62,926 nt of DNA from Solobacterium sp. (GTDB lineage Bacteria; Bacillota_I; Bacilli_A; Erysipelotrichales; Erysipelotrichaceae): assembly GCA_017469885.1 (NCBI GenBank), contig JAFUFO010000033.1, positions 1-62,926 of the forward strand, written 5' to 3'. The position numbers and the translations under genes were made by a program. Shown in pieces: positions 38,372 through 56,081 of this stretch (within the stretch, counting starts at the first letter, position 1; the number at the start of each line of letters is the position of its first letter). The notes beneath the pieces were generated by a model, which was not told where the DNA came from, made no database searches, and saw nothing but the letters and a program-made list of their open reading frames with translations.

Positions 38372-38389
38372 TATACAACAGGTCTTTTC

Positions 38390-38406: not shown

Positions 38407-38422
38407 AGCAAAGGAGTACAAA

Positions 38423-39676: not shown

Positions 39677-40633
39677 TTATCCTTGAGCAATCATTTGATT
39701 AATAGCATTTACTTCTTCTGCACTCTCAATGTAGTTGGGATTTGAGAGCCGTGTGTCACGCAACGATTTTTTCAATTTGTCACAACAAGGCTTAAATGTA
39801 AGATATGTAATTCCACCTCCAAGGACCCCTCCAACCACAGGAATTGATTTACCAAAAAAGCCAGCAAAAACATCCTTGGTCATTTTTTGGCCAAACCATT
39901 TCGCAACATTTTTTACTATTGGATAGATAGTCCCTTTAGTCAATGCAGCGTTTAACAGCTTTTTTTCAACGCCTTTTCCAAGAGCGTTCGCCATTATTTT
40001 CATGGCATTGTTTGCACCAGCTGTACCATACATAATTCCCATGCAAATTATAAGAATATTCATAGTTTCAGAGTCTAAGTGACTTCCTTTTTCTTCCACA
40101 TCAATCTGCGGAAAGCCGTATAAATACAACAGTTTCTGCATGGCTCGCAAAAGATAGCCATAATACTGAATAACATCTGCGGGTATTGTAGCTACCATTG
40201 CCAGTCCACCAGGAGCTCCTAATGCAGCAGAAATGCCCGAAACAAAATTGCGCTCATACTTAATGACTTCGTCGGCAATTTTATCAATCTCATCCCTCGA
40301 TATACCTGCATGCATCGGATTATATTGCACTGCGTCCTCGATCGTTTCGGGACTAAAATTTTTATAAAACTCTTTCCTAAGAAATGATTCCCGATTCACT
40401 TTTACTCCAGGTGTCTTTAGTCCTTTAATGATTACATCTTCAATGTCAATCTCTCCATTGCCATTTTCATCAATAACTTGAACAATCTTTTTTTGTGCAC
40501 TGTTAACAGTCTTGGATGCTCCTTGCGTAACAGTCTGGACTGCTTTTCCGGCCTCAGACGCGGATTTTTTTACTACCGATGCAGTATTTGAAGCGAATTT
40601 TTTTAAATCTATTTTGCTATCTTTATTTCCCAT
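39677..40633 (-). CDS. EcsC-like membrane-associated protein with an EF-hand-like loop
   Basis: A 318-residue protein. Residues 1-50 are Ser/Ala/Lys-rich and amphipathic. Residues 55-66 read DENGNGEIDIED, spacing like an EF-hand or dockerin calcium loop. From about 90 a helical region with GISAALGAPGGLAMVATIPADVIQYYGYLLRAMQKLLYLYG (three short runs) resembles the EcsC family, followed by glycine-rich hydrophobic stretches (GFFGKSIPVVGGVLGGGI). No signal peptide, so it probably sits at the inner membrane face. Last gene of a three-gene operon, 16 bases after the secreted nuclease/lipase-like gene. Function unknown. Confidence 0.65.
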   Translation of the reverse strand: MGNKDSKIDLKKFASNTASVVKKSASEAGKAVQTVTQGASKTVNSAQKKIVQVIDENGNGEIDIEDVIIKGLKTPGVKVNRESFLRKEFYKNFSPETIEDAVQYNPMHAGISRDEIDKIADEVIKYERNFVSGISAALGAPGGLAMVATIPADVIQYYGYLLRAMQKLLYLYGFPQIDVEEKGSHLDSETMNILIICMGIMYGTAGANNAMKIMANALGKGVEKKLLNAALTKGTIYPIVKNVAKWFGQKMTKDVFAGFFGKSIPVVGGVLGGGITYLTFKPCCDKLKKSLRDTRLSNPNYIESAEEVNAINQMIAQG

Positions 40634-40649
40634 TGCTACGACACCTTTC

Positions 40650-41504
40650 TTATTTAAAACATTTCTTGAAGAATTTTTCCTTATAAATAAGAAGACTCAC
40701 ATTATCCTCAAGTATTTCCATTAATCTCGTTGCGTACTCATTATATTTAGTATAGTTTTCCACATCGTATAAATCACTTTTCGATTTGTATACTTCTTTA
40801 ATGTCACGTTGGAGCGATTTCAGACTGTCGATAAAATTCCTATATGTTATTGTCTCGGTTTCAATGTCTGATGAACTTTGAAATAGTATCGGACTTAAGA
40901 GAATCAACTCCTCTATAATACCCGTTTCGTTCCCCCTACCTTTTACAAGAGGAATCTCCTCATAGCTTGGATGAAATGTTGTGTTGGATATGTGATCACC
41001 AATAATATGGACGTAATATATCAGTTTAGAAAAGGCAACGCATTGTGGGTCGTAGTATCCCAATTTCCCCGAGAGAAAGCCAAAATCAAATACCTTGTTA
41101 ACTGTATTGAGAATTATTCTTTTTCTTATATCCACCCAGTGGGCCTCATCTCCCGTCTCAAGTTTGGAATAATCATAATCCCAGCCGCGATGTGTGTAAT
41201 TGCGGTGCAACGCACCATGGCCAACATTGAATTCTTCCGTTTTTTCAGGGAGACCAGGTACACCAAATCCAATCAATTCATTCAAAGTATTTTGCCCGTC
41301 GTTATTATGTTGATCAATAGCAATTTCGCATGCATCATTCAAAGCGTCGAATGCATCTGTGTTTGAGACAGCAGATCCACCAAAAAGTACTTTTCTTAAT
41401 AATTGAGCATGCTTGTCCCCATCAAATGCATGCACTTTCATCGGTTGTAATGTGCAACAGACAACGGACAACAACAGGATGAATATTGATATCAGTCTTC
41501 TCAT
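40650..41504 (-). CDS. Secreted P1-nuclease/phospholipase-C-like protein
   Basis: A 284-residue exported protein with a signal peptide (hydrophobic 5-20, then VHAFDGD). The mature part is helical and His-rich: HGALHRNYTHRGWDYDY (about 96-112, His 100 and 105) and YYVHIIGDHISNTTFHP (about 163-179, His 166, Asp 170, His 171, His 178). That resembles the zinc-ligand helix (LVHFxGDxHQPLH) of S1/P1 nucleases and zinc phospholipases C. The match is by pattern only, so the activity is a guess. It overlaps the preceding gene by four bases. Confidence 0.6.
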   Translation of the reverse strand: MRRLISIFILLLSVVCCTLQPMKVHAFDGDKHAQLLRKVLFGGSAVSNTDAFDALNDACEIAIDQHNNDGQNTLNELIGFGVPGLPEKTEEFNVGHGALHRNYTHRGWDYDYSKLETGDEAHWVDIRKRIILNTVNKVFDFGFLSGKLGYYDPQCVAFSKLIYYVHIIGDHISNTTFHPSYEEIPLVKGRGNETGIIEELILLSPILFQSSSDIETETITYRNFIDSLKSLQRDIKEVYKSKSDLYDVENYTKYNEYATRLMEILEDNVSLLIYKEKFFKKCFK

Positions 41505-43303
41505 TTTGTCCTTTCAAATGTGATATCTTTAAATACCTTCAGTTTAGGTTTCACATGAGTAATAAATATTGCCTCTAATGGTTCACACTGCCCGCCTATG
41601 ACAGGGATTATCTCGATATTTATTAAAGTCCCATCTTCGTACTTGTAATTCTTAATGGATTCGCTCAAAAGTCGCACCCTAAACGATTCAACATTAGATG
41701 TCTCTTTTCCTCTGTCAACTTTTTCAACAGTCCAGTCGGTCACCTCTTTTTTCTCATTATCATTTTCAATTAGAACATTTATTTGAAAATTATTAGATAA
41801 AAGATTCGCTGGAAGAGTAATGCTATCTTCTGAGTATTCGACGTCATAATCAGAAACTGTTTCAATTTCATCAAAATAATATAATTCATCTAATGGAGTG
41901 GTCAGAAACAGCGGATCCTCCTTTTTTCTGCCATGAAGAATTCGTTCTATCTTATCTTTTTCCTGTTCAGAAATGTTCACTCTATCAGCCAGAGCAAATA
42001 ATAAGTCACAGTTTAAATACAGTGCTTCATTCACGGGAGGCAATTCTTTTTTTCGTTCTGCCTCTAACATCTTATTGTATTTTTCTATGTCCTTTTTTTC
42101 TGTCTTTGTTGCATCCTTTGGTACAGGCTTTTTCTGAATCTTTGAAACATACGTTGTATTCAACGTTGTCTGCTGATCAATTAAGTAGTTAACATTGTCT
42201 TTCGTCAATTTATACGCTGCTTCTAAAAACGATTTATCTTTTGTTGTTGAATATAAATCCAAATATGTTTGAGCCGCGAAATATCTTAGTGACCAGTCTT
42301 TTGTTTCTAAATTCGAAATCAGAGCTGAAAGATAATGCAATATCTGCTCATTTGCCTCTTCTTTATCTTTTTCAACTTCCTGAATTGAAACTATTGCCAA
42401 TGGTATTATTCTACTAAACTCATGATCCTTACGGAAAATCCGATAATTTAAGCTTTCATACTCTTTTACAGCCGTTAAGCATTTTGCGTATTCCTCTATC
42501 TGAAAATAGCATTCTGCAAGCGAGAGCCAATAAGGCCCAAACTTCTCAAACGTCCTTTTATTTGACTCAAAATATTGGATTTTACGGTCAACATTGGTTT
42601 TATTTCTATAATCTACAAACTCATCAATTTTTGTATTACTTAATGCATACTCATCAGGCATATTGCTTTTGTGAACCATGTCAATCATGTAGTTAAACAA
42701 TGCTTCCTGACTATGATTTAATGCTTTCGTAGCCTCATCATCCAATGCCCAATTATCTTGTAAATACTCAAGCTCAGCACTAGCCATAGCGGAATCATAG
42801 CTAGTTTTGGCGTCAACAGCCATGTACACAACAGATCCTATTAGTGAGGCAAGTGAGAATGATCTTGTTGCCGACAAGAGGCCGAGCGGATTCGGAACGG
42901 CATTTCTCAACGCCTGTGCTTTATTTTGATCGTAAATATACTGGAGGCGCTCCCGCTTAACATCAATCATCCTATAGTTGTCAATCGTTTCCAACATATC
43001 AGTCAACTGAACTTGGGTTCGAGAATCTATCGCGCTTGGAGCAGTATTATTCATAAGAGATGAGTAAATTTCTTCTAGTACAAGTTTACTGTTGCTCGAT
43101 TTGTTGATTTCACTATTGATAAGTGAAACATAGTTCAGCATCGCAACATAGTTATTATTCTCAATCGCTTCTTTTGCTTCATAAGTAGAACTAATATGAT
43201 CATTTCTATTGCCATCCGCATGAATGCAAAAAGAGTTCGAACCAATAGCTATCGTTGAAGACAGTAAAACTGTAATACCTGTCCTAATAATCTTTTTGAA
43301 CAT
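41501..43303 (-). CDS. Secreted 600-residue protein of unknown function
   Basis: From the ATG at 43303 (AAGG 6 bases upstream) it begins with a clean signal peptide (MFKKIIRTGITVLLSSTIAIG, first 20 shown are enough to see the hydrophobic core). That start removes 15 charged residues that would otherwise precede the signal. A hydrophobic Gly/Ser stretch near 150 may be membrane-inserted. The middle (200-400) has helical pairs such as YWLSLAECYFQIEEYAKCLTA that look like TPR repeats; the last 130 residues look beta-rich. I do not recognise the family. It is coupled to the nuclease/lipase-like gene. Confidence 0.65.
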   Translation of the reverse strand: MFKKIIRTGITVLLSSTIAIGSNSFCIHADGNRNDHISSTYEAKEAIENNNYVAMLNYVSLINSEINKSSNSKLVLEEIYSSLMNNTAPSAIDSRTQVQLTDMLETIDNYRMIDVKRERLQYIYDQNKAQALRNAVPNPLGLLSATRSFSLASLIGSVVYMAVDAKTSYDSAMASAELEYLQDNWALDDEATKALNHSQEALFNYMIDMVHKSNMPDEYALSNTKIDEFVDYRNKTNVDRKIQYFESNKRTFEKFGPYWLSLAECYFQIEEYAKCLTAVKEYESLNYRIFRKDHEFSRIIPLAIVSIQEVEKDKEEANEQILHYLSALISNLETKDWSLRYFAAQTYLDLYSTTKDKSFLEAAYKLTKDNVNYLIDQQTTLNTTYVSKIQKKPVPKDATKTEKKDIEKYNKMLEAERKKELPPVNEALYLNCDLLFALADRVNISEQEKDKIERILHGRKKEDPLFLTTPLDELYYFDEIETVSDYDVEYSEDSITLPANLLSNNFQINVLIENDNEKKEVTDWTVEKVDRGKETSNVESFRVRLLSESIKNYKYEDGTLINIEIIPVIGGQCEPLEAIFITHVKPKLKVFKDITFERTK

Positions 43304-43359
43304 CACCTTATCCTCATCTTTCCATCCATATTTAATATCAACGAGCATCCGCCAATTAT

Positions 43360-43593
43360 TCAGTCAGATTGTCTTTTCCATTCTGTTAGGCTCATTCCAG
43401 TCTGTTTGTCGATCCATCTGGAAAGATCTTCATTCGCGATCAAGTTATACTTGCCCACCTTTTTATAAGGCAATCCATCCACATGCAAATACGTGTGAAC
43501 AGTTCGGGTGGTGACACGCAAAATTTCAGCTACTTCCGCAACTGTGTAATAGCCTGGCGGTGTTTTCTGCCGGCGCACTGTCATCTTTCTCAT
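43360..43593 (-). CDS. Excisionase/MerR-type HTH protein
   Basis: A 77-residue DNA-binding protein with YYTVAEVAEILRVTTRTVHTYLHVDGLPYKKVG (two runs, about 15-47), the standard excisionase/MerR-like winged HTH, then NEDLSRWIDKQ. It could be the recombination directionality factor for the serine recombinases or a local regulator. It lies 56 bases upstream of the secreted-protein gene, in the same orientation, with a 22-bp palindrome ahead of it. Confidence 0.82.
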   Translation of the reverse strand: MRKMTVRRQKTPPGYYTVAEVAEILRVTTRTVHTYLHVDGLPYKKVGKYNLIANEDLSRWIDKQTGMSLTEWKRQSD

Positions 43594-43761: not shown

Positions 43762-43790
43762 AGAAAACCGCTTCCTCTCAAAGGAAACGG
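43762..43790 (-). terminator. Terminator of the ssp operon
   Basis: CCGTTTCCT / AGGAAGCGG stem (43768-43790, one G-U/mismatch) followed by TTTTCTT on the minus strand, about 75 bases past the last ssp-operon gene. A second small hairpin (CCGG/CCGG) precedes it. Confidence 0.8.
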
Positions 43791-43863
43791 CATTTTGTTC
43801 CGGAAAACCGGCAATATGAGTCTTATGCGAAGTAGTAGCACTTCACATGAACAAACCATGAAA

Positions 43864-44403
43864 TTAAAACGCAGGGCCAAAATCAATTATGTCTTTCACA
43901 TCATCTTCTTCATGATAATCATTAATATCTATCAGCAACTCGTCTAATGCATTCAGATAATCCTCAAAATGCATATTTGCTTGATAAAGTCTATCATGTA
44001 ATAGTTCCAATCCGCCCAACATATATGTTTCAAAAACTTCGATATTGTTTTGAAATTGAGGATCATCTTCAGTATATCTAAATGCGTTATTGATCCTTTC
44101 AATAGGAGATAGCACTTCTTTGTCAGCATTAAGCATTACAAGCTTATAAGCAAATACCAAGTCTTGATAATGATTTGTAAATTGGTTTGCCATTATTCTT
44201 TTTGTAGGATCTCCTGTATCTGGTTTTCCTTTGACTTGATAGTGTGCACCAATTATTGCTGCGGCAAGATATAATTCCACTGCAGAATCAAATATTTTAG
44301 CCCCGCTTGCCGGATCAACTGTCTCAGTTAAATCCACTACCATTTGGGTGTAACGGCCCTTAAAAAGATAATCTTCAAGAAATAGTTTTTTTATTTTAGC
44401 CAT
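43864..44403 (-). CDS. 179-aa protein ending the ssp operon (SspF/G/H-type component)
   Basis: Soluble, acidic, mostly helical protein (e.g. DSAVELYLAAAIIGAHYQVKG and FETYMLGGLELLHDRLY), 179 residues. I do not recognise a catalytic motif. GAGGAGGTG at the end of the ATPase gene lies 11 bases before its ATG, so it is made together with the ATPase. Published SspABCD-SspFGH systems have three restriction genes after sspBCD; this would be the smallest of the three. Which letter applies I cannot say. Confidence 0.6.
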   Translation of the reverse strand: MAKIKKLFLEDYLFKGRYTQMVVDLTETVDPASGAKIFDSAVELYLAAAIIGAHYQVKGKPDTGDPTKRIMANQFTNHYQDLVFAYKLVMLNADKEVLSPIERINNAFRYTEDDPQFQNNIEVFETYMLGGLELLHDRLYQANMHFEDYLNALDELLIDINDYHEEDDVKDIIDFGPAF

Positions 44404-44409
44404 TTCTTT

Positions 44410-46434
44410 TTACACCTCCTCAATAATTGTGGAATACGCACCAGTTTTTCTCATTGTGTATTCTTTTCCAAGAATATTTGCAATATCCTTCTTAACATAT
44501 AAACCATCTGTATCCTTAATAAAGAATATTACCTGTTCAGCAATGTTCGGCATTATTTTGCAAAAGTTTTCAATGCGTTTTGTATCAAACGATGACGATG
44601 GTGCATCCATAACTAGCGGATAAGGTTCGACCTCAAGATTGTCTATTAGCTCATCATCATCGGTTTTGTCTTGAGCCTTAGAAACAGCTTTCTCGCGGGC
44701 GAGTTTAATGATTCCACCAATAAATGAAAATGCAAGAATGGCATCTTGAGATGTTGAATTTTGAAAATCATCAAGATCTAAACTATTATTACTCTTAATT
44801 TCCATACTATAATCGTCATTCAGTACCAAGTAAATATTGACATCAAACACATTGGAAAAAATCTCATTAATAGCGTCTTGAAGTTCCTTTCTCTTCTCTC
44901 TCTCACCCTTTTCGCAATATTTTTCTACTTTTTCTAGAAGCCAGCTTGCATACGCTTCACATTGTTCAAGTTTTCTGACTTTTTCGTCTGTAGATTTATA
45001 ATTGAGCTTTTCCTTTTTGGCTATATCTCGGAGGCTAATTTGTGTTTCAATCTTATTCTGCAACTCCCCTATGGTTTCGTGGATTTTCTCGATTGTCTGC
45101 TCCAAATCTTGCTCTCTTTGTTTTTTCTTTGTCATGTCAGGAAACGATTTGATTTCTCTATCTATTTCCTCAAGTTGCTTTTCTTTGTTCACAATAGATT
45201 CTCGAAGTTCACGAAGCCTTCTCTCGTCATTTTGATGATTTTCCCAATACTCATTCGCTGTTTCACAACGTATTCTTCCGGTTTCATCAAAGGTATTGAT
45301 TTCAGCCCCAAGGCTATGAGGAGGTAAATATTGAATTAATGATTGAAGAATCTTTCGTTCTTCACAGTTTTCCGAAATCTTTTTCCCGCAAAAACATTCT
45401 CCTTCATTCAAATTTCCATTTAAAACATACTCAATTGCAGAGGCATTCATCCCGGGTATTCCTTTGCTGGCATCTCCTCCATGTTCTTTCAAAAATTCAA
45501 GCGATTCTTCAATTAGCGACTTAGCAAGCAAGCGGTAACCCTGTTTACTGAAATCACTAAATATTTTCTTTTTATTATCTTTTTCAGAATCAATCAGCCG
45601 CTTGATCTCTGTACTTAATAGTAATGATTGTTTTTGTTTCTCGGCGACATTCCCTGATTTTAAGATCTCGTCACTAACAGATTTCTTTTCTTCCTTAAAC
45701 TTTTCCAAACTACTCTTATATGATGTAAGCTGCTGGTCAAATCCTTCGATTTTATTATCTGCATCATTTATCCTTCGTTGAATCTCTTGGATTGTTAAGT
45801 CAGCCTTATTATTTTCAATTTCTTCAGAGTATTGCTTTACAACCTTTTTAAGATCACGTATTTCTTGATATAGCCAATTAAAGCCAAGCATCCCACGAAT
45901 TGCATTGGTGAATTCACCACTTGATGTGGTTTTCCCGTTAGATATTTCCTGGCCAATCGCTTCAATGTTTTCCCCTTGGAAAAAGAAATAAGGAAACAGA
46001 TCTTTCGGAACAATTTCGTCAATTAACGATCGTGCTGCACTGTCACGTAATTCTTTTGAGTTACCATCATCGTCAACATAACTAATCAAAACATATGAAT
46101 TCGACACTTTTACTTTTGTATTCGCCTTTGTAGCATACGCCCAACGATTAATACGATATTCTCTTCCTAAGTGTTCCAAACATATTGTTCCTTCTATTTT
46201 TAGTTCTTCCTCTCGAGCAACAAGTTTATTTGCCTGTTCTACGTTCACAATACTTTTTAGTCCAGAAGCCTCTCCATAAAGGATCCAAGAGAAAGATTCA
46301 AGCAATGTTGTTTTACCTGTAGCATTTTCCGCAATTATCAAAGTCGCCTTTTTATCAGGATCTACCGAGAACTGAATGTCCTGTTCTCCAATAAATTGCC
46401 TAAAATTCTTTAGTGTTAATGATTTGATAATCAT
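44410..46434 (-). CDS. SMC/Rad50-like ATPase of the ssp operon
   Basis: ATPase of 674 residues. It opens with the recF/SbcC pattern KSLTLKNFRQF, then Walker A AENATGKTT (Lys 41; the usual first Gly is Ala). Two long coiled-coil arms (about 190-300 and 390-500) flank a Cys-containing hinge (GECFCGKKI ... NCEERK). Walker B is YPLVMDAPSSSFD near 600. It resembles DndD as well as general SMC-like defence ATPases. It probably partners the helicase in the restriction module. Its ATG overlaps the stop of the 55-aa gene (ATGA). Confidence 0.8.
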   Translation of the reverse strand: MIIKSLTLKNFRQFIGEQDIQFSVDPDKKATLIIAENATGKTTLLESFSWILYGEASGLKSIVNVEQANKLVAREEELKIEGTICLEHLGREYRINRWAYATKANTKVKVSNSYVLISYVDDDGNSKELRDSAARSLIDEIVPKDLFPYFFFQGENIEAIGQEISNGKTTSSGEFTNAIRGMLGFNWLYQEIRDLKKVVKQYSEEIENNKADLTIQEIQRRINDADNKIEGFDQQLTSYKSSLEKFKEEKKSVSDEILKSGNVAEKQKQSLLLSTEIKRLIDSEKDNKKKIFSDFSKQGYRLLAKSLIEESLEFLKEHGGDASKGIPGMNASAIEYVLNGNLNEGECFCGKKISENCEERKILQSLIQYLPPHSLGAEINTFDETGRIRCETANEYWENHQNDERRLRELRESIVNKEKQLEEIDREIKSFPDMTKKKQREQDLEQTIEKIHETIGELQNKIETQISLRDIAKKEKLNYKSTDEKVRKLEQCEAYASWLLEKVEKYCEKGEREKRKELQDAINEIFSNVFDVNIYLVLNDDYSMEIKSNNSLDLDDFQNSTSQDAILAFSFIGGIIKLAREKAVSKAQDKTDDDELIDNLEVEPYPLVMDAPSSSFDTKRIENFCKIMPNIAEQVIFFIKDTDGLYVKKDIANILGKEYTMRKTGAYSTIIEEV

Positions 46435-46598
46435 AAGACTTCATCCTCGATTATTTTCATGATGCTTTTAACCATGTATCCCTGTGTATGCTCTTTTTTC
46501 TTGTAATTAGTTTTTTCTAGCTTATGAATTCTTTTCTCTATTTTTCTTTTGGTTTCTGGATCCAATTTTTTCTTAGCGTCTGCTGTCTGCTCCATCAT
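46431..46598 (-). CDS. 55-aa basic coupled peptide between helicase and SMC-like ATPase
   Basis: A short gene with full translation signals: GAGGAGG lies 4-5 bases before ATG at 46598, inside the helicase coding end. The start shares one base with the helicase stop (TAATG) and the stop overlaps the ATPase start (ATGA). The product is highly charged and probably helical (MMEQTADAKKKLDPETKRKI as its first 20 residues, ending KIIEDEVL), Lys-rich with no Cys. Being locked between two machine subunits by overlaps at both ends suggests a real subunit or adaptor. I know of no family. Confidence 0.7.
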   Translation of the reverse strand: MMEQTADAKKKLDPETKRKIEKRIHKLEKTNYKKKEHTQGYMVKSIMKIIEDEVL

Positions 46599-48778
46599 TA
46601 TTCCTCCTCATTCCATTGTATTTCAGCTAACTCATCAATATCGAAGTCATATAATCCATAATCTTCTTTAATCTGATCAGCTAATAAATCACTTTCATCA
46701 GGATTCATGGAATACTTTCCAAATTCCGCCATTCGAGCTGTTTCGTTTTTAATTAATGCTTTATATGATTTAGAAGATTCCGTGCTATCTATTAGTTCAG
46801 TTGGAGGAAGTGGTAAAGTAATAAAATCATAGATTACAGCTTTTTTCTTACCCTTTGCCGTTCTCAGTACTCGACCTCTCCTTTGAATATACTCTCTTGG
46901 ATTAGTACTACTTGCGAGAATGAAAGCCGTGCGAATACCAGGTATATTAACGCCTTCATCAAGGCATTTAATTGCGACAAGTGCTTGTAAATCATTTCCA
47001 TCTTTGAAACGATTCTTTAAGACTCTTCTTTCCTCAGTTGATTCTCTAGATGTGTATCTACTAACCTTCATACCATATTGTGAATACAGTAGAGAGGTCA
47101 CTTCATCTATCTGCTTCGTTTCACCCTCTGTTCCTTTATTAATTTTTGAAGTCCCACAATAGATGAGCATGTAATGATCTTTTCGATCCGCATAGGGCCG
47201 AATTACTTCTAGGAGTTCTGTCACTTTTCCCCTTGCTCCGGCAATCAATCTAGCCCTTTGAAGAGCATATCGCTCTCCCGTTTCATTCATTTTTCCTTCT
47301 TTGTTAATACACTTTGATATCAATTTTGTTAAACGCAGATATTCTTCGCGCTCGTCTTCATCAAGATAGACAATTATAGGATGATACTCATAAGGAGTTA
47401 GTTTGTCTTCTCGAATTGCCCTTTCTAACGGATACTCAATGCACTTTTTCCCAAAATAACCAAATATACGTCGCGTTCCTTCCTCATCTCGATATCTCTC
47501 AACAGTGGCTGAAAGAGCAAGTCGAAAGTTAAAGTTGTATAACATGTAATCAACCATTGCTTCGGTGCCGAAATTATGTGCCTCGTCTGCCACTAATAAT
47601 GCTGGGCCTTTAATTTCTTTTAGAACCTCTTGTACCTTTGGAAGTTTATAAGAAGCATACGTAGTGATAAAGTAGAAAAACGGCAATGTCCCCGCATTGA
47701 ATTGAAGAACGCTGCTTTTCAGTTCGGATAAATATCCTGCGTACTGCTTGCTTGAATAACCAACAATCATATGATTGATATGAAATAACGCAGCATCATC
47801 AAGCCATTGCTCAACTAGATGTGTATATGGAGCAATAATAACGGTCGCTAGATGATACTTTGTTCGCTGTAATAAAGTGACCATCGCACCAAATCCGGTA
47901 AATGTCTTTCCAGTTCCAGTTGCCATATCAAATATGCCAACACACCTTTCAGACAACCATTTATTGATTGCGTCACCTTGATATTTATAAGGAAAAGTCG
48001 GGGTTCGCTCTTTATCGATTCGAGGAAGATCTATTTCATTTTTTCTGCGAAATTCTTCTTCATCCTTTTCAATATTTCTGTTGTATGTTTCCTTTTTATA
48101 TTTAAATAATTTTTTCTTAACTACTTCAGGGAATTGAAACACTTCAATTTTGTTGGTTTGGTTTGCCCACATCTCATCAAAATCGCTTTCAACATCATAA
48201 ACAAAAGATGTTGATTTATCCCACGACTTAAAAACACGAATTTGTTCAAAATTATTATTAAACGCATTAGCGGATTCATTTAATGAACCTTCGAAAGCAA
48301 CTTTGTTTCCTAGAGAGTCTTCAAAAATGCCAATTTTCTCGTGATACATTCCAATATCATCTTCAGAGAAGCAAGTAATTGCAACCTTGATATCCATAGC
48401 ACCAGAAGATATTAGATGACAAAGAATATTTAACCTTTCCTTACCAAATTTATCGTCTGGATCATCTAAAGCAGACAATAAAGACTTTTCGATTATTTCC
48501 TGTCTCGTAGCATAACCTTTTTTTATAGCGGTCACATCTTCTATTGTTAGTCTTGGCGAAACAATTAATTTGATTACTGGGTCCATTCCGGCACTATACT
48601 TTTCCGCAACATTTAATAACCCCTTTGAGGTATAAATCAATGATGAAGATGAGAAAAATCCAACTGCTCTCTTATATGAAACGCTCTCTAGCAGCATTTT
48701 CTCGATAAAAGATTTTCCAATGTTAGGAGTATCAGACGATCTGTATTTTCCTTTAATGTCTATATCAAGAAAACTCAT
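46598..48778 (-). CDS. PLD-nuclease/SF2 helicase of the ssp operon
   Basis: A 726-residue fusion. Residues 30-180 are a phospholipase-D-type nuclease domain with one HxK motif (YHEKIGIF, His 146/Lys 148) and GSLNESANAF after it. Residues 260-700 are a superfamily-2 helicase: TFPYKYQGDAI, Walker A MATGTGKT (Lys 291), DEAH at 398-401, SATVERY, and the motif VI region YIQRRGRVLR. This is the natural DNA-cutting part of the restriction module, acting on unmodified DNA. It lies 18 bases after sspA. Confidence 0.85.
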   Translation of the reverse strand: MSFLDIDIKGKYRSSDTPNIGKSFIEKMLLESVSYKRAVGFFSSSSLIYTSKGLLNVAEKYSAGMDPVIKLIVSPRLTIEDVTAIKKGYATRQEIIEKSLLSALDDPDDKFGKERLNILCHLISSGAMDIKVAITCFSEDDIGMYHEKIGIFEDSLGNKVAFEGSLNESANAFNNNFEQIRVFKSWDKSTSFVYDVESDFDEMWANQTNKIEVFQFPEVVKKKLFKYKKETYNRNIEKDEEEFRRKNEIDLPRIDKERTPTFPYKYQGDAINKWLSERCVGIFDMATGTGKTFTGFGAMVTLLQRTKYHLATVIIAPYTHLVEQWLDDAALFHINHMIVGYSSKQYAGYLSELKSSVLQFNAGTLPFFYFITTYASYKLPKVQEVLKEIKGPALLVADEAHNFGTEAMVDYMLYNFNFRLALSATVERYRDEEGTRRIFGYFGKKCIEYPLERAIREDKLTPYEYHPIIVYLDEDEREEYLRLTKLISKCINKEGKMNETGERYALQRARLIAGARGKVTELLEVIRPYADRKDHYMLIYCGTSKINKGTEGETKQIDEVTSLLYSQYGMKVSRYTSRESTEERRVLKNRFKDGNDLQALVAIKCLDEGVNIPGIRTAFILASSTNPREYIQRRGRVLRTAKGKKKAVIYDFITLPLPPTELIDSTESSKSYKALIKNETARMAEFGKYSMNPDESDLLADQIKEDYGLYDFDIDELAEIQWNEEE

Positions 48779-48796
48779 AGTATCCTCTTCTTATAT

Positions 48797-49927
48797 TTAC
48801 AATGTACCTAATGCTCTCACTGCTTTTGCCAATTCAGATTTTGTATTGAATGCTCCAACACTCAATCTCACAGTCCCATTAAATTCTTTGCTACCAATAA
48901 GCTCATGAATAAATGGGCTACAATGAAAGCCTGTCCTTACACATATATCAAATTCCTCAGAGAGTATGGAGCCTACATCTGCCGAGGAATATCCGTTTAC
49001 CGCCAATGAAACGATCCCAACGATTTTTGAAACATCTTCTGGTAGAAATAGATGCACATTTGGCAGATTAGAAAGCTTATCTATCAAATAGTCTGTCAAC
49101 TCTTTTTCGTGAGAATAAAGAGTATTGTTATTTTCAAGCCATTTCAAGCTCGCATTCATACCAGCTACTGCAACACTGTTCAAGCTTCCTGACTCATATC
49201 GTCCCGGTCCATCTTCGGGCATCTTGTGATTCAGTGAATCTGATCCAGTTCCTCCGCTTTTTGTGACGTTTAATTTAATTCCCGTGAGATTGTAGAAGCC
49301 GGCGATACCGAATGATGCATAAAGAGATTTATGCCCAGCGAAGACAACGAAATCAGTATTTCCAACTGATGGATTTAGGATCCCTAGACTCTGCGAACAG
49401 TCGAGTACTGTAATTGAATTATATCGCTTTGCAGACGCAAAAATTGTTCCAAACGGAAGAATATAGCCTGTTACATTGCTGATATGGGATATAAATACAG
49501 CCTTAGGATTTTTTAAAGCAAATAAATCAGCTGCTCTTTCCTCATCAAACTTCCAAGTCTTTTTATCAAATGGAAGAAGTTCGATGTTAATTCCTATTTT
49601 TTCTTTCAGATTATAAAGTGGTCTAACTACAGCATTATGCTCAAAGGGAGATATATAAACCGTATCTCCACTTTGAAATGGAATTCCGTTAATGATAATG
49701 TTTAGTGCCTCTGTTGCTGATGATTCAAAAGAGACGGTATTTCCAGGAACTTTCAACAGATCACCAAGAAGCTGCCTCGTTTCTTGAATGAGTTCCGTAA
49801 CGGAACGGGCAGAAGGATAGCTCCCCCTCCCCGCGTTAAAAGCAAGGTTTCGATTTCCATAATCTAACGCCTTATACACTTCCTCAGGTTTAGGATAGGT
49901 TGTTGCTGCATTATCAAGATAAATCAT
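48797..49927 (-). CDS. sspA: SspA-like cysteine desulfurase
   Basis: PLP enzyme of 376 residues that takes sulfur from cysteine as a persulfide. It begins with the aminotransferase-V pattern IYLDNAATTYPKP. The PLP Lys is in VFAGHKSLYASFG (about 205) and the persulfide Cys in RTGFHCSPF (about 338), a SufS/Csd-like arrangement. Its position in the ssp operon, 14 bases after sspC, indicates it supplies sulfur to SspD. Many sspBCD-type loci lack their own desulfurase and use IscS, so its presence is informative. Confidence 0.88.
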   Translation of the reverse strand: MIYLDNAATTYPKPEEVYKALDYGNRNLAFNAGRGSYPSARSVTELIQETRQLLGDLLKVPGNTVSFESSATEALNIIINGIPFQSGDTVYISPFEHNAVVRPLYNLKEKIGINIELLPFDKKTWKFDEERAADLFALKNPKAVFISHISNVTGYILPFGTIFASAKRYNSITVLDCSQSLGILNPSVGNTDFVVFAGHKSLYASFGIAGFYNLTGIKLNVTKSGGTGSDSLNHKMPEDGPGRYESGSLNSVAVAGMNASLKWLENNNTLYSHEKELTDYLIDKLSNLPNVHLFLPEDVSKIVGIVSLAVNGYSSADVGSILSEEFDICVRTGFHCSPFIHELIGSKEFNGTVRLSVGAFNTKSELAKAVRALGTL

Positions 49928-49941
49928 ATTATTTCTCCGAA

Positions 49942-52900
49942 TTAAAGAAGACTTTTCATCAGTTCACCCAGAATAGCTATTTTTTCCTCGGTACTGACGC
50001 CTTCAGCAAATTCATCCATTGCATTTTCTATACTGTTGCGCATTAACTGCCCTAATGGAGTGGATTGAACAGAACTGATATTACTAAGGACTTGATCTAG
50101 CGAAGAGTTAGAGGTGTCGATTTTATTTGATTGAATCAGGGCATTTTTGAATGCATGAAGTTTTTCTTTCATGGCTTCTGATTCATCGTTATTCCAGTCT
50201 TCGATATATACCCCAATCGTTGCATATGCAAGATCGTCGCATGTATTGTTATCGTCAAAACCGGAATTATTGATAGCATTATTGATTCTGCTTGCTTCTT
50301 CATTGAGAACCGGAGTAGTATCTTCCGTCACTTTTCGGACGTAGTCTGTCAGGCCCATTTTTAGACTGGTTGTCTTCCTTATTGAAAACTCCTTCCGTAT
50401 CATTCCGATTAGCTCTTGCTTATATCCATTCAAGTATTCTTTCCAGTTCAGAATATAGTCGGAAAGTTTGTTTGTAATCTTCTCGTAGTCTGAGGTCTCA
50501 AAGGTTTCCTGTGGTCTATCAAAAACCAATTCATAAGGATTGATATTATATGAATAGAACAAGTTCTGATACGCAATGATATTTTGATCAATTTTTAAAT
50601 AATCAGAAAGATTATCTCTTGCTCGCATAATTGCAGGAAGGCCAACAAAGAATTTCCGATATTCTTCGCAGAGTGTTCTTGTATCCACTCTAAAATTGCC
50701 GGCCGTTTTTGCTTTAAGCAATGCAAGCATATTGTAAAGATAATTGGACTGTTCTTTTGAGCCTCTAGAAAAACTAACAGAATATTTACCGGGATTATTA
50801 ATAGCCTTAACTATATTGGTTGGAACAAGATCAAGCTCCTGATTCTGAATATAAAGAATCACATTATCGGAAAGCTCGCTGATTGCTTTGGAAAATAGAA
50901 TTGGTAGTATTCCCTTTCTTACCCCGTATGGAGCGGCAGTATACTTATCTACAATCGTCTGCATTTCAGTCTTTTTTCTTTCGGCTTCAAAAATGAAATC
51001 TTTTATTCCATCTACAATTTCCCTAGCGTTTTCATCAATGGTCGTCGAATCTTTTAAAATTCGATTTACAACAGAAGCACGTACGGTTGATTCAGGGCTT
51101 GTCTCGGTGTAGGCGTAATCAGTTTCGTTCATCCCTTCTAGAATCCATTGCATAACGTTATTCACAGGCTTCTGATATTGTGTGGTGAGTTCATTTTTAT
51201 TGATTAGCTCGTTATTGAACACTGGAGTTTTCGGATAGTATCTTTCCATGATCAATGATAAGGCTTCTATAAAATCCTTATTTGTATCCTCATTCTTTAA
51301 TGCAGCACTGAAGAATTTGCACTTTTTACCGTAATGTCTATCAATCAAAGATTGGATATCATCACGGATTTCTTCAAACAGGATATTCAATTCACTAGTT
51401 ACAACCTGATCATTGCCACCGCGGCGAATGATTTCCTGTATCGCCGCATATCTAATCAGTTCATCAGTAAAATACTTATCCATTTTTTCCGCCGGATATC
51501 TGACAATTGCTCGCTGATCATTAATTTGGAGCATTTTGGTTTTGATATCTTTTTCTTTCAGATCGTTTCTGATCAGATTGATAACAATACCATCGCAAAA
51601 CATATGCTCATAGAAAACGTCAAAAGAAGACATTTCCATAAACTGTTTTTCTGTAAGATATACCGTACGCAGAAATCTGGTAATCTTCTTTTGCTCATTA
51701 TGTCTTCTAGGCAAAAAATATTTGGTCTCATCTATTTCTCCAGCAATCGAATCAATCGGTATATTCTTACCACGCGCTTTTGTTATTGTTTTTATCTGAT
51801 CGTCTATTTCTTTTGAGTTCGCTGACGCAAAGGAGAGAAGGTGATTAATAACATTTCGGCGCAGATAGTGATCGTCAATCATTGCATCGATAAGATTTTG
51901 GGTTTCTTCCGCAGGCATCTCAACAGCGAGGGAAAGGTTTTCCACAGATGGTGCAAACCGATCGTTATCATTGATCATCAGGATAATTGCAAGTGCCTTA
52001 ATCAGCTTTCTTTTCTTCTGATCATCAGTTCTTGCAAGTGTTCCTTCTGTTCGAAACCAGATATTGCGAATAGCATTTTCTTCTTCTCGCCTTAACAGTG
52101 GGCTGAAATAATCATAGATTTCATCTACATCAAAGAGCTTGCTTGTGGTATTCGAATTACGGATAAAAGAATTCAAAGAGTGCTCGTCAGTATCAGATAT
52201 GAACGTAAACAACGTCCGTTCATTTTGTGCAACGATTTCAGAGAGATGAATCAAAGCATACACTGTCATAGGATTCAGGGGGAAACATCCATTAATCAAG
52301 GAATCCACATTTCCTTCCTTTTCAAATGGTTGTGATTTCTGAATTCGCTCTATGAAACCCGCATTCTTTTTCTTAAATCCACCCAGAACCTTCTCATATC
52401 CGTCTTTCTTTCGGATGGCTGCTGAAATAATCTGATAGTTTTCTTCCAATGATCTGTTAAATTTAATCTCTGTAAATCTTCCTTCCACAGTTTTAAATGA
52501 ATCCTTCTTATTTGAGGAATCAATATAAAGATTCAGACTCTTGTGGGTAACACACGTAATATGGAGTTGACAGTCTTTACTACTTCTAGACGCGAGCTCC
52601 GCAAAGTCCTGAATAATTTTCAGGTTCTTCATCAGTGAGGATCCGGAACTTTCTATAAACTTTGAGAACTCGTCAAAGATAATGAACATCCCGGAATACC
52701 CAAGCTTTGAAAGCTCATAATCTACATCTGAATAAAGCTTTGTAACATCGTCGCTGATTAAAGGGTTGAATTTTACCCCAATAGTCATACAGTTGTAGAT
52801 GCTTTCAAACGTTCTATATTTCTCGGGAGAATAATCCTCAAGACCAAGTTTTAACTCTTTATAAGTTATTCTTTCTTTATCAAGGCAAACTTTGAGGGTG

Positions 52901-53445
52901 TCCCAGGTTCCCTTGTTCTTACGCCAGTTTTCAAGAAGTTCAAGGCAGACGGAATAAATAGTATTTGGAACAATGCTTTCTTTGCCTACTCTTTTTAGTG
53001 CATCATTTAATGCCAGCATAAAAGACTGCTGAACATTGTCATAGTTTGAGTTGACGATAACCGGCAGAAGTTTCATTTTGCCAGCATCAAATTTCATTAT
53101 TAATTCATATAATTCTTTATCTATCGCTTTGATCCGCTTCAGAAGATTCTTATAAACTATGGTTTTCTTGTCTTTCCCAATCAAATAGGCAAGAACTAAA
53201 AGGAGAAAAGATTTTCCTTTTCCATACGGACCGACCAATGTAGTTGCTTTCTCAGTAGTCATGCCTAAAAAGCAACGGAAGTATCTCTTTAGCACATCAC
53301 AGATGTCTGAAGTCGGAATGTACTCTTCTATCTTTTTTTCGTTATTCAGATCAAATTCCAGGTTAATGGAAGCCTGGAAGTTCTTATTAATACTAACGAT
53401 ATCTCTGTACAGCATCGCCTTACTCTCCTCCAAGCTCTTTCTCAA
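49942..53445 (-). CDS. sspC: SspC-like large ATPase
   Basis: A 1167-residue P-loop protein. Walker A is GPYGKGKSF (Lys 78) and Walker B is FIIFDEF (Asp 258, Glu 259). The N-terminal pattern resembles BrxC/SspC-type large defence ATPases. The remainder is helical with no recognisable catalytic motif. It overlaps sspB by 26 bases. In the Ssp scheme SspC is the ATPase that works with the DUF4007 nickase and SspD to insert sulfur into one DNA strand. The letter is assigned by context rather than a specific motif. Confidence 0.75.
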   Translation of the reverse strand: MRKSLEESKAMLYRDIVSINKNFQASINLEFDLNNEKKIEEYIPTSDICDVLKRYFRCFLGMTTEKATTLVGPYGKGKSFLLLVLAYLIGKDKKTIVYKNLLKRIKAIDKELYELIMKFDAGKMKLLPVIVNSNYDNVQQSFMLALNDALKRVGKESIVPNTIYSVCLELLENWRKNKGTWDTLKVCLDKERITYKELKLGLEDYSPEKYRTFESIYNCMTIGVKFNPLISDDVTKLYSDVDYELSKLGYSGMFIIFDEFSKFIESSGSSLMKNLKIIQDFAELASRSSKDCQLHITCVTHKSLNLYIDSSNKKDSFKTVEGRFTEIKFNRSLEENYQIISAAIRKKDGYEKVLGGFKKKNAGFIERIQKSQPFEKEGNVDSLINGCFPLNPMTVYALIHLSEIVAQNERTLFTFISDTDEHSLNSFIRNSNTTSKLFDVDEIYDYFSPLLRREEENAIRNIWFRTEGTLARTDDQKKRKLIKALAIILMINDNDRFAPSVENLSLAVEMPAEETQNLIDAMIDDHYLRRNVINHLLSFASANSKEIDDQIKTITKARGKNIPIDSIAGEIDETKYFLPRRHNEQKKITRFLRTVYLTEKQFMEMSSFDVFYEHMFCDGIVINLIRNDLKEKDIKTKMLQINDQRAIVRYPAEKMDKYFTDELIRYAAIQEIIRRGGNDQVVTSELNILFEEIRDDIQSLIDRHYGKKCKFFSAALKNEDTNKDFIEALSLIMERYYPKTPVFNNELINKNELTTQYQKPVNNVMQWILEGMNETDYAYTETSPESTVRASVVNRILKDSTTIDENAREIVDGIKDFIFEAERKKTEMQTIVDKYTAAPYGVRKGILPILFSKAISELSDNVILYIQNQELDLVPTNIVKAINNPGKYSVSFSRGSKEQSNYLYNMLALLKAKTAGNFRVDTRTLCEEYRKFFVGLPAIMRARDNLSDYLKIDQNIIAYQNLFYSYNINPYELVFDRPQETFETSDYEKITNKLSDYILNWKEYLNGYKQELIGMIRKEFSIRKTTSLKMGLTDYVRKVTEDTTPVLNEEASRINNAINNSGFDDNNTCDDLAYATIGVYIEDWNNDESEAMKEKLHAFKNALIQSNKIDTSNSSLDQVLSNISSVQSTPLGQLMRNSIENAMDEFAEGVSTEEKIAILGELMKSLL

Positions 53446-54259
53446 AAATTTCTTTAAGTGTCAGCCGTTGTTCAAAATATACGGTATTTAATCCTGCGGT
53501 TTTATTTATTGTCACAAGGCCGGATTTTCTCATCTCATCAAGATACTGAAGATACATATACTTATCGAGATTGAATATTTTCACTGGAGAATTTTCTTTT
53601 TCCATGGATTCATCTATCTCAAAAGAATCCTTGTTCGGATAAAGATTCAAAAGCGCATAATAAATCAGAAGATAGCTCAAGGTTAGATACTTTGGCTTCT
53701 CCATTTTGTACCCGCCTTTTTCTTTTGCAATCAGTTTGAGACTTGAAAGTGGGCAGCGATAATTATCTTCCGGATTTTCACTGATACCTTCCCTGACATA
53801 GCTTTGAATCAACACATTAAAGTCTGCTTCTATAGATTTCAGGCTCACTTTATTATCAATTTGTCTCAGCTCGCCATCAAGGTATTCAAGCATATCCGCT
53901 TTCGAGAAGGTTCCAATTCCAGAATTGAACACTGAATTAAAAACCGGGCATTCTTCTTTGTTTGAAACTAAACAATAATGAATAAAAAACCAGGTGAAGT
54001 CTTCTCCAAGATAACGATCATTTTCCAAGATGATATTGGCGCTGTCAGTAAGTTTGTTTGACTTGTCATCGATAAGACCTGCAGCTTTAAGCCAGTACTT
54101 AAGGCCTTTTACCATATTCGCTCCAATGCCAAGGTATTTCACGCCATCATTCTTAAAAAAGATATTTATCCCTTCATTTTCTTCGATTGTATTGAGTGCT
54201 TTTTCAAACCAACCGTCACGAATATAAAACGTTTCGTGTTTTTTTAGCTTGAGAGTCAT
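53420..54259 (-). CDS. sspB: SspB-like DUF4007 protein
   Basis: A 279-residue protein with the DUF4007 opening (HETFYIRDGWFEKALNTI, 8-25), an FFKNDGVKYLGIGANMVKGLKYWL segment (two runs) that looks like a DNA-binding helical domain, and a C-terminal winged-helix-like part. As I recall the Ssp literature, the DUF4007 protein SspB is the DNA-nicking component. It shares one base with the sspD stop and overlaps sspC, so all three are tightly coupled. Confidence 0.82.
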   Translation of the reverse strand: MTLKLKKHETFYIRDGWFEKALNTIEENEGINIFFKNDGVKYLGIGANMVKGLKYWLKAAGLIDDKSNKLTDSANIILENDRYLGEDFTWFFIHYCLVSNKEECPVFNSVFNSGIGTFSKADMLEYLDGELRQIDNKVSLKSIEADFNVLIQSYVREGISENPEDNYRCPLSSLKLIAKEKGGYKMEKPKYLTLSYLLIYYALLNLYPNKDSFEIDESMEKENSPVKIFNLDKYMYLQYLDEMRKSGLVTINKTAGLNTVYFEQRLTLKEIFEKELGGE

Positions 54260-56007
54260 TAGTCATTCCCCCTCTTTACGCGAATTACTTTCTTCATATA
54301 ACAGCCCCCATCAAAATGTGTTACACATTCAAGACATCCAGCACACATATCAGAATTTATGGTGTACCGTATCGACTCATTGCTAACATGCCCAGGCTGT
54401 GTGTTGATTACCTTTAATGCATTGAATTTACATACAGACTGACAGTAACCGCACCCAATGCAAGTTTGGTATTTTGTCACCTGACTATTCAATGCTTGCT
54501 CCGTTGTTTTGGAATACTTAAACATTCCCACTTTATTCAGTACCGATATACGGAGAATATTTGTTCCCTTTCTCCCACTAAGCTTTAAAATCGGTGTATC
54601 TGTTTTTTTATCCAGCACATACACTTCATTTAGCCGTTTATTCCCCATCTCAAAGTTCAGTTTTCCGAACGGCTTGAATAATGTATAAAGATCATCAGAA
54701 ATAGGTCGTGGTAGATCGTAGTTATACGCATCTTCCTCAAAGGCACACGGTTTGAAATTCACAAAGGTATTCTTGCTGTAATCAAGACCGTTACCACCCT
54801 GCCGAGCTTTCCAGTTACCACTATCGACATAAACCTGCCAATCGTCTTTTCCGACCTTTTTTGCAAAGTCATATAGCATCCCTTTGAATTCTTTGTATTC
54901 TTCCGGCATATAAATAGAAGAAAGGAATTCCGACCAGGAACTGTTATTCGGGCAACACCAGCAACCAACCCGAGAGAAACCCTGCCTATAAGCATTATTG
55001 AAAGGGATGCGATTCGCTAAGATATATAGCCAGACATCAAAGTCCAACCAGTCAATGATTGGAGATGCCGCAACTTGTTTAGAAATCTTCGATCCGGTAG
55101 AAGTACGCTCGTATTTACTACGCGAAACCGATTCCGCTCTACGAATTCCCTGAAAGGAAAGCAGGCGCTTCTTATCTCTGAATATCTGTTCAATTTTTTT
55201 GGTAATAGCACCAGTCTTAAATACGGTGCAACACCATCTCAAAACACGGCTCGGCGGGCCGACAACTGTACAAAGATCTGTAAACTGCTGTTCGTTATTT
55301 CTTGCCACAAGCATCGGAGTTTGAGGGAATTCTTTTCTAAAGGTTTTTATGTATTTCTCAGACTCCGGGTATTCGAGAGTTGTATCACCATAGATATGTA
55401 TCACCTTATCTGTATTGAGCGCTCTAAGAACCAAAGAACTAGTAACAGTTGAGTCTTTGCCTCCTGAAAAAGAGACAAACATTGAAGACTGATCGAACCC
55501 TTTAGAAATATCCCTAATATAGGAAAACGCTTCTTCCGTAATCGTGTTTAACCGATATTTGTTCGCTTCTACAAAAGTATTAATAAAAGGATTATCAAGA
55601 TCGTTTTCTACATACGGGCGGTTAACTTCTTCGTATTTCTTTAGTTGCGCAATTACATACTCCGGGTCCGTTTTTCTGAGGGCTTTTTGATCAATCTTCA
55701 GTTTTTCGCCATCCACCCAATACATATTCGAAACCGTAGTCCATACAGATTTACCTGCATATTCCATCGGTTTTCCTAATAGAACCTCCAATAAAAGCCG
55801 TTCTTGAGCAAATACAGGACGAGCATCAGCGCCAATCTTTTTCCCCTTTGATCCACAGATTGAACATGTTTCCTCGAATAACGGTGTATTACACTGAGTA
55901 CAGTAAAAAATATCAGCACTTGCAATGTCTGCACGATTACCGCAGACAGGGCACGTACTAGATTCACAGGAAAGCCCATCACATTTTTTGCATATATACT
56001 TAATCAA
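54259..56007 (-). CDS. sspD: SspD-like PAPS-reductase-family ATP pyrophosphatase with Fe-S domains
   Basis: A 582-residue protein with a TTG start at 56007 (GAGGTG 7 bases upstream). The N-terminus has four Cys-pair zinc ribbons (CKKC, CPVC, CTQC, CSIC; residues 6-51). The PP-loop is SFSGGKDS (about 179-186), as in DndC/PAPS reductase, with RWCCTVFK and GCWCCPN supplying cluster ligands. A C-terminal ferredoxin domain follows (CIGCGYCQSVC and CAGCLECVTHFDGGC). It should activate the DNA phosphate for sulfur insertion. It is first in the operon. Confidence 0.87.
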   Translation of the reverse strand: MIKYICKKCDGLSCESSTCPVCGNRADIASADIFYCTQCNTPLFEETCSICGSKGKKIGADARPVFAQERLLLEVLLGKPMEYAGKSVWTTVSNMYWVDGEKLKIDQKALRKTDPEYVIAQLKKYEEVNRPYVENDLDNPFINTFVEANKYRLNTITEEAFSYIRDISKGFDQSSMFVSFSGGKDSTVTSSLVLRALNTDKVIHIYGDTTLEYPESEKYIKTFRKEFPQTPMLVARNNEQQFTDLCTVVGPPSRVLRWCCTVFKTGAITKKIEQIFRDKKRLLSFQGIRRAESVSRSKYERTSTGSKISKQVAASPIIDWLDFDVWLYILANRIPFNNAYRQGFSRVGCWCCPNNSSWSEFLSSIYMPEEYKEFKGMLYDFAKKVGKDDWQVYVDSGNWKARQGGNGLDYSKNTFVNFKPCAFEEDAYNYDLPRPISDDLYTLFKPFGKLNFEMGNKRLNEVYVLDKKTDTPILKLSGRKGTNILRISVLNKVGMFKYSKTTEQALNSQVTKYQTCIGCGYCQSVCKFNALKVINTQPGHVSNESIRYTINSDMCAGCLECVTHFDGGCYMKKVIRVKRGND

Positions 56008-56031: not shown

Positions 56032-56081
56032 ATGATTTTCAAAATCATTTTAGCATATCCAGTTCTATGATCTGATGTAAA
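56032..56081 (-). promoter_or_regulatory. ssp operon promoter with a palindromic operator
   Basis: On the minus strand, TTTACA (56076-56081), an 18-base spacer and TATGCT (56052-56057) form a promoter 45-75 bases ahead of sspD. The 17-base perfect palindrome ATGATTTTCAAAATCAT (56032-56048) lies where transcription should start, fitting a repressor site. The rest of 56082-56328 has no gene; it contains only AT-rich sequence and one copy of AAATGGGGTA (56233-56242) that recurs at 56893-56902. Confidence 0.65.

What the first reader, a model, noticed from the sequence alone, without database searches (positions are those of the whole stretch)
43864..56007. Complete Ssp-type DNA phosphorothioation and restriction operon on an AT-rich island
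Eight coupled genes run sspD-sspB(DUF4007)-sspC-sspA-PLD/helicase-55 aa-SMC-like ATPase-179 aa on one strand, with very short gaps or overlaps. Seen: the PP-loop Fe-S enzyme, desulfurase, DUF4007 protein, large ATPase, nuclease-helicase. Known: SspABCD makes single-strand phosphorothioates, and an SspFGH-type restriction module has been published. Inference: this locus is that system, in a gut Bacillota and with its own sspA. The exact match of the last genes to SspF, G and H is not settled.
Basis: partly seen in the sequence, partly recalled or inferred. Interest (0 to 1): 0.85.

Follow-up and report, generated by a model that had tools for sequence, protein, structure and literature searches.

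The report
Ssp DNA-sulfur operon with Pbe effector
Eight linked genes in a gut bacterium of the Erysipelotrichaceae most likely write sulfur marks into the DNA backbone (Ssp genes) and stop unmarked phage DNA (Pbe genes), a pairing I found repeatedly in related bacteria but in no paper I could search.

Summary
The eight-gene operon is real and at the stated coordinates (43864-56007, minus strand). Its first half is a complete Ssp-type phosphorothioation module, ordered sspD-sspB-sspC-sspA. Its second half is not SspFGH. It is PbeABCD: a PLD nuclease-helicase, a 55-aa helical protein, a CxC-type ABC ATPase and a DndE-like protein. PbeABCD was described as a partner of Dnd, not Ssp. SspF/SspG models do not hit the window but do hit other Bacillota in the same slot after the same Ssp genes.

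The pairing is recurrent. In 392 genomes of the phylum, 7 of 9 with SspB also carry PbeA, adjacent in each (Fisher p 4e-9). Of 66 relatives with readable downstream genes, 41 carry Pbe genes, 12 SspFGH, 7 a helicase-GHKL-PLD trio, 6 GmrSD proteins. Two Clostridium loci share 82% identical sspDBCA DNA that ends at sspA, then differ. Alphaproteobacterial plasmids hold Ssp+Pbe in other gene orders.

Pbe proteins co-vary with SspB/SspC, not with SspA/SspD, suggesting the effector is matched to the DNA-recognition subunits. Phosphorothioation and phage defence are inferred, not shown. Verdict: a new variant (new pairing) of a known kind, moderately interesting.

The parts
54259..56007 (-). sspD (582 aa): zinc-ribbon-like Cys pairs, PP-loop PAPS-reductase domain (SGGKDS), CC and CWCC cysteines, C-terminal two-cluster ferredoxin domain; BrxP-like long form
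   Evidence: PF01507 5.4e-34; PADLOC BrxP 3.2e-81, SspD 1.8e-10; eight ferredoxin Cys invariant in 10 homologues
53420..54259 (-). sspB (279 aa): DUF4007, predicted DNA-recognition subunit
   Evidence: PF13182 228 bits; PADLOC SspB 1.7e-46; solved SspB 6juf/6lb9 E 6e-6
49942..53415 (-). sspC (1157 aa): AAA+ ATPase (SspC/BrxC family)
   Evidence: PADLOC SspC 6.1e-95, BrxC 1.1e-28; Walker A/B invariant or nearly so in 83 homologues
48797..49927 (-). sspA (376 aa): SufS-like PLP cysteine desulfurase, K200 and C336
   Evidence: TIGR01977 1.5e-108; SufS-type structures match best; K200 and C336 100% of 78
46598..48778 (-). pbeA (726 aa): HKD/PLD nuclease fused to SF2 helicase
   Evidence: PADLOC PbeA 1.8e-219 over residues 4-695; TIGR04095 448 bits (below its cut-off of 600); H146, K148, D154, S165, N167 100% of 49
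46431..46598 (-). pbeB-like small protein (55 aa), predicted two-helix hairpin
   Evidence: Position between pbeA and pbeC; related small proteins in the same slot in about 30 loci; AlphaFold2 model pLDDT 85
44410..46434 (-). pbeC (674 aa): CxC-type ABC ATPase related to DndD
   Evidence: PADLOC PbeC 4.2e-95, DndD 1.4e-32; CFC motif at 347-349, both Cys 98% of 53
43864..44403 (-). pbeD-like protein (179 aa), DndE-like predicted fold
   Evidence: TIGR04062 dnd_assoc_4 E 2.4e-5, below curated cut-off; best structural matches are three DndE structures, Z 7.5/6.7/6.3, next 4.4
56052..56081 (-). promoter-like site upstream of sspD
   Evidence: TTTACA-18-TATGCT, 9 of 12; pattern only
43767..43791 (-). 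terminator-like hairpin after pbeD
   Evidence: 11-pair stem, T-rich tail; pattern only

Best explanation
This is one transcription unit for a phosphorothioate-based defence system with a hybrid make-up: an Ssp modification module (SspD, SspB, SspC, SspA) and a PbeABCD effector module. Modification (inferred from families): SspA takes sulfur from cysteine onto C336 and passes it to SspD. SspD, with its PP-loop and Fe-S/ferredoxin cysteines, places the sulfur in the DNA backbone at sites chosen by SspB together with the ring ATPase SspC. Effector (inferred): the PbeC-PbeD pair (CxC ABC ATPase plus DndE-like protein) scans DNA. PbeA, a helicase with an intact HKD nuclease site, acts on DNA that lacks the mark and halts phage replication, and the small helical PbeB serves as adaptor or regulator. 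Shown by sequence: gene content, order, family identity, intact catalytic residues, recurrence of the cassette, and stronger co-variation of Pbe with SspB/SspC than with SspA/SspD. Not shown: phosphorothioate in the DNA, its motif, phage resistance, and whether PbeA cuts.
For: Profile identity of all large proteins. Same eight-gene order in many Bacillota. Co-occurrence in 392 genomes, 7 of 9, p 4e-9. Catalytic residues conserved. PbeD model resembles DndE. Clean module swap with SspFGH at the sspA/effector border. Ssp+Pbe loci in other gene orders on alphaproteobacterial plasmids. Pbe-SspB/SspC co-variation remains after controlling for SspA or SspD. Known biology: Dnd-Pbe blocks a virus in archaea (PMC6459918); SspBCD modules protect with SspE or SspFGH (PMC8092258).
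Against: No experiment. The PbeB and PbeD matches are below curated thresholds or rest on position. The long SspD is closer to type-4 BREX BrxP than to the short SspD model. SspA is SufS-like, not the IscS-like SspA that was tested in Vibrio (PMC7188994). PMC10853773 questions whether Pbe is a true restriction partner of phosphorothioation at all.
Confidence: 0.85

Rival explanations
1. SspABCD-SspFGH system: the last genes are divergent SspF, SspG and SspH that damage unmarked DNA.
For: The Ssp module is the same kind, and in other Bacillota SspFGH follows a closely related sspDBCA module.
Against: No SspF or SspG model hits the window at E up to 0.01, nor the two small proteins at E up to 10, while the same models hit the alternative module in L106 at 2e-35 and 5e-28. 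The window genes match PbeA and PbeC over their full length.
Confidence: 0.02
2. A type-4 BREX (BrxPCZL) variant: BrxP split in two (SspD and DUF4007) plus BrxC.
For: SspD and SspB match BrxP 20-517 and 525-772. PMC12839542 notes shared SspB/C/D-like parts and a cysteine desulfurase.
Against: PglZ, retained in all 457 type-4 taxa in that survey, is absent from the whole genome (96% complete). No PglZ or BrxL model is among the hits listed for the eight proteins.
Confidence: 0.05
3. The Ssp module makes phosphorothioate for another purpose (redox or gene regulation), and the Pbe genes are an independent defence module that merely sits next to it.
For: Pbe occurs with methylases or alone elsewhere (PMC6459918). 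Ssp modules swap effectors often.
Against: Apparent single operon with 18 nt between sspA and pbeA; adjacency in 7 of 7 co-occurring genomes of the sample; co-variation of Pbe with SspB/SspC; pairing in other gene orders in alphaproteobacteria.
Confidence: 0.1
4. Abortive-infection version: Pbe spares incoming DNA but kills or arrests the cell when marks are lost or a phage removes PbeB. This differs from the best explanation in the effector step only.
For: Proposed for CxC systems by PMC10853773; the HKD site is intact in PbeA.
Against: In the archaeal Dnd-Pbe system, loss of the modification genes caused no apparent growth defect (PMC6459918).
Confidence: 0.25

Closest known systems
DndCDEA-PbeABCD (Haloterrigena jeotgali A29, PMC6459918)
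   Same: Same four-gene effector: PLD-helicase, tiny protein, CxC ABC ATPase, DndE-like protein, in the order A-B-C-D.
   Different: Modification is by Ssp genes, not Dnd. In this sample the Bacillota Ssp-linked PbeA form their own clade (97% SH-aLRT).
SspABCD-SspFGH (Vibrio anguillarum FF-93, PMC8092258)
   Same: SspB, SspC and SspD families; effector genes coupled to the modification genes.
   Different: SspFGH replaced by PbeABCD; own desulfurase gene linked (FF-93 was used with iscS); long ferredoxin-bearing SspD.
Type-4 BREX (BrxP-BrxC-PglZ-BrxL, PMC12839542)
   Same: BrxP-like SspD with ferredoxin domain and DUF4007; BrxC/SspC ATPase; linked desulfurase in 56% of type-4 taxa.
   Different: No PglZ in the genome, no BrxL hit at the locus; DUF4007 is a separate gene; Pbe effector present.
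CxC ABC-ATPase/DndE-centred systems (PMC10853773)
   Same: PbeC has the CxC motif; PbeD is DndE-like; HKD-SF2 nuclease.
   Different: That paper describes coupling with Dnd and methylases. The passages I read describe no coupling with Ssp; PbeB is predicted here as an ordered helical hairpin rather than mostly disordered.

Membership tests
SspABCD modification module | SspB with DUF4007 | tested here: met
   PF13182 228 bits, cut-off 27
SspABCD modification module | SspC AAA+ ATPase | tested here: met
   PADLOC SspC 6.1e-95; Walker motifs
SspABCD modification module | SspD PP-loop sulfurtransferase | tested here: met
   PF01507 5.4e-34; SGGKDS invariant; but BrxP (3.2e-81) outscores SspD (1.8e-10) among PADLOC models
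SspABCD modification module | SspA cysteine desulfurase | tested here: met
   PADLOC SspA 7.4e-31, catalytic Lys and Cys present; SufS-like rather than IscS-like
SspABCD modification module | Single-strand phosphorothioate in DNA | not testable with these tools
   Needs mass spectrometry or PT-seq
PbeABCD effector | PbeA: PLD/HKD nuclease plus SF2 helicase | tested here: met
   PADLOC PbeA 1.8e-219 over 4-695; motifs invariant
PbeABCD effector | PbeC: CxC-type ABC ATPase | tested here: met
   PADLOC PbeC 4.2e-95; CFC motif
PbeABCD effector | PbeD: DndE-like small protein | tested here: inconclusive
   TIGR04062 E 2.4e-5 below cut-off; DndE structures top the list at Z 6.3-7.5 with a gap to 4.4, but Z is under 8 and the model has pLDDT 73
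PbeABCD effector | PbeB: very small protein between pbeA and pbeC | tested here: met
   55 aa, same slot in about 30 loci, shared signature
PbeABCD effector | Blocks virus replication dependent on phosphorothioate | not testable with these tools
   Known for the Dnd-paired archaeal system only (PMC6459918)
SspFGH effector | SspF and SspG homologues | tested here: not met
   No hit in the window; positive control L106 hits at 2e-35 and 5e-28
Type-4 BREX | PglZ present | tested here: not met
   No PF08665 match in the whole genome, 96% complete
Dnd modification | DndC present | tested here: not met
   Only sub-threshold match in the genome is SspD itself, 43 bits against a cut-off of 290

The most novel reading that the evidence does not exclude
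SspDBCA is a common modification chassis with a fixed effector slot after sspA. PbeABCD, SspFGH, GmrSD proteins (with or without PbeBCD) and an unnamed helicase-GHKL-PLD trio replace one another there. Effectors are matched to the SspB/SspC recognition pair, so a DndE-type reader (PbeCD) has been retuned from Dnd marks to Ssp marks.
Probability: 0.4. Interest if true: 0.7.

Novelty: new variant of a known kind. Interest (0 to 1): 0.52.

Why it matters
In 2021 only 7.3% and 7.4% of 2,678 sspBCD loci had SspFGH or SspE, with both in 36 further genomes (PMC8092258), so most Ssp modules had no known effector. This work names PbeABCD as the commonest effector of the long-SspD Ssp module in the Bacillota set sampled here, and shows effectors exchanged precisely at the sspA border. 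Because the same kind of effector works with Dnd marks in archaea, the pairing makes it directly testable whether Pbe reads the sulfur, the motif or the recognition proteins. It also gives a concrete candidate for phosphorothioate-based defence in gut Bacillota.

Tried and rejected
SspFGH identity: rejected by profile search with a positive control. Type-4 BREX: rejected, no PglZ. Second Dnd system in the genome: none. Empty-site search for the island: DNA flanks gave no useful close match in 70 same-genus genomes, so island borders and an att site could not be fixed; repeats around the island gave nothing convincing. One alignment call failed on coordinates. Viral contigs: 80 hits, mostly distant PAPS reductases, one closer at 41%. 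PDB sequence search for SspC: no match. Free exchange of Pbe between Dnd and Ssp within Bacillota: not supported, Ssp-linked PbeA form one clade in this sample. Literature: no searched open-access paper couples Ssp with Pbe; subscription papers and the bioRxiv paper on type-4 BREX in gut bacteria were not readable.

Full report
What is there. The operon at 43864-56007 (minus strand) has eight genes, with spacings of -1, +4, +14, +18, -1, -4 and +6 nt. The sspC start is better placed at ATG 53415, behind GGAGG. The sspD start is a TTG at 56007 behind AGAGGTG. A promoter-like site lies upstream and two terminator-like hairpins downstream; these are pattern matches only. The genes sit on a 34-41% GC island in a genome region of about 52% GC. 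The left end of the island carries two tandem serine recombinases. The nearest sequenced relative with the complete operon is Erysipelotrichaceae bacterium NK3D112, placed in the same genus by the genome tool (identified by matching contig length). Inference: gut or rumen Bacillota.

Modification half. SspD matches the PAPS-reductase domain at 5e-34 and carries a two-cluster ferredoxin domain. Among PADLOC models BrxP scores highest (3e-81), and BrxP positions 525-772 match the next gene, so the two genes look like a split BrxP. PMC12839542 notes that a subset of SspD shares this arrangement. Ten homologues keep the PP-loop SGGKDS, the CC and CWCC cysteines, and eight ferredoxin cysteines. SspB is DUF4007 (228 bits) and matches the solved SspB weakly. 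SspC matches SspC profiles at 6e-95. SspA is a SufS-like desulfurase: its best solved relatives are SufS-type enzymes, whereas the Vibrio SspA resembles IscS (PMC7188994). The genome has no PglZ and no true DndC.

Effector half. PbeA and PbeC match PADLOC models over nearly full length (1.8e-219 and 4.2e-95). The HKD residues H146, K148, D154, S165 and N167 are present in all 49 PbeA aligned, and the helicase motifs are intact; the two cysteines of the PbeC CxC motif are each in 98% of 53. The 179-aa protein matches TIGR04062 only at 2.4e-5. Its model (pLDDT 73) has DndE structures as its three best matches, Z 7.5, 6.7 and 6.3, with the next, unrelated match at 4.4; Z is under 8, so this supports but does not prove a DndE fold. 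The 55-aa protein is predicted as an ordered two-helix hairpin (pLDDT 85) with a recurring signature; PMC10853773 calls this family mostly disordered. No SspF or SspG model matches the window.

Recurrence. In 392 genomes of the phylum, 9 have SspB over the cut-off, 18 have PbeA at E 1e-60 or better, and 7 have both, adjacent in every case (p 4e-9). The two SspB genomes without Pbe carry other modules. A scan of GTDB genomes with the SspD alignment gave 80 loci (the list is the best 80 of 369, so it is biased to close relatives). The Ssp genes present follow the order sspD-sspB-sspC-sspA in every locus, as far as contig ends allow. In 66 of them the downstream genes could be read: 29 have Pbe with PbeA, 8 have a GmrSD protein plus PbeC and other Pbe genes, 3 have GmrSD plus PbeA, 1 has PbeBCD alone, 12 have SspF and SspG, 7 have a helicase-GHKL-PLD trio, and 6 have GmrSD without Pbe in the stretch held. 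The other 14 end at or near a contig edge or carry unclassified genes.

Exchange. On a tree of SspC the effector label needs 22 changes (17 if all Pbe types are joined), against a shuffled mean of 34. The clearest case is Clostridium gallinarum (SspFGH) against Clostridium sp. D43t1 (Pbe): DNA is 82% identical over the whole sspDBCA block and the match stops at the end of sspA. So SspFGH and Pbe replace each other at a fixed slot. Ssp-linked PbeA of Bacillota form one clade apart from Dnd- and methylase-linked PbeA (97% SH-aLRT, small comparison set). Two alphaproteobacterial plasmids hold Ssp+Pbe with a short SspD in other gene orders, and their PbeA fall outside that clade (long branches, so tentative).

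Co-variation. In 28 Ssp-Pbe loci the rank correlation of pairwise identities is 0.82 for PbeA-PbeC and 0.89 for SspB-SspC, 0.52 and 0.49 for SspC-PbeA and SspB-PbeA, but only 0.25 for SspD-PbeA and SspA-PbeA. With SspD or SspA held constant the SspB/SspC link stays (0.44-0.55 with PbeA), while SspD and SspA lose theirs. Since sspA is the neighbour of pbeA, plain linkage does not explain this. Inference: the effector is matched either to the recognition proteins or to the motif they set. Relatedness among loci is only partly controlled.

Function. By published family knowledge, SspABCD makes single-strand phosphorothioates and protects with SspE or SspFGH (PMC8092258), and archaeal Dnd-Pbe blocks virus replication without visible cutting (PMC6459918). 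I infer phosphorothioation plus Pbe-mediated exclusion here.

Novelty. Both halves are known, and the pairing was not described in any open-access text searched. Subscription papers and preprints were not available, including a preprint on type-4 BREX phosphorothioation in gut bacteria cited in PMC11931770, so the pairing may already be known there.

Noticed in passing
L087:17185-21525, L082, L084, L085, L086, L089, L144; plasmid locus L228:21465-25897: A three-gene module (SF2 helicase, GHKL ATPase, PLD protein) sits directly after sspDBCA in the slot used by Pbe or SspFGH, also on a Treponema saccharophilum plasmid; a candidate unnamed phosphorothioate-linked effector.
   Followed up: partly
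L094:7835-12133, L104, L107, L108, L110, L125, L129, L133: GmrSD (DUF262, SspE/Orf5-like) proteins take the place of PbeA in front of pbeB-pbeC(-pbeD) after sspDBCA; L136 has pbeBCD directly after sspA with no nuclease gene in between.
   Followed up: partly
window 39677-43348: Three co-directed genes beside the operon: an EcsC-like protein matching the PADLOC candidate PDC-S30 (1e-96), a secreted-looking protein without family, and a 615-aa repeat-like protein; possibly a second defence module.
   Followed up: no
window 35153-37856: Two tandem large serine recombinases, related to each other, at the left end of the AT-rich island; likely mobility genes of the island.
   Followed up: partly
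window 38115-39406 (+) and 43360-43593 (-): A small HTH-like protein, a WYL-domain regulator and an excisionase-like HTH protein on the same island.
   Followed up: no
L038 (G148): A copy of the Ssp-Pbe operon broken into pieces by frameshifts or stops in sspD, sspC, pbeA and pbeC: a decayed operon.
   Followed up: no
L063:4380-15001 and L039:6839-16860: Loci with a short SspD: one has a GHKL-like and a DUF262-like gene before sspBCD, the other has pbeABCD before sspBCD.
   Followed up: partly
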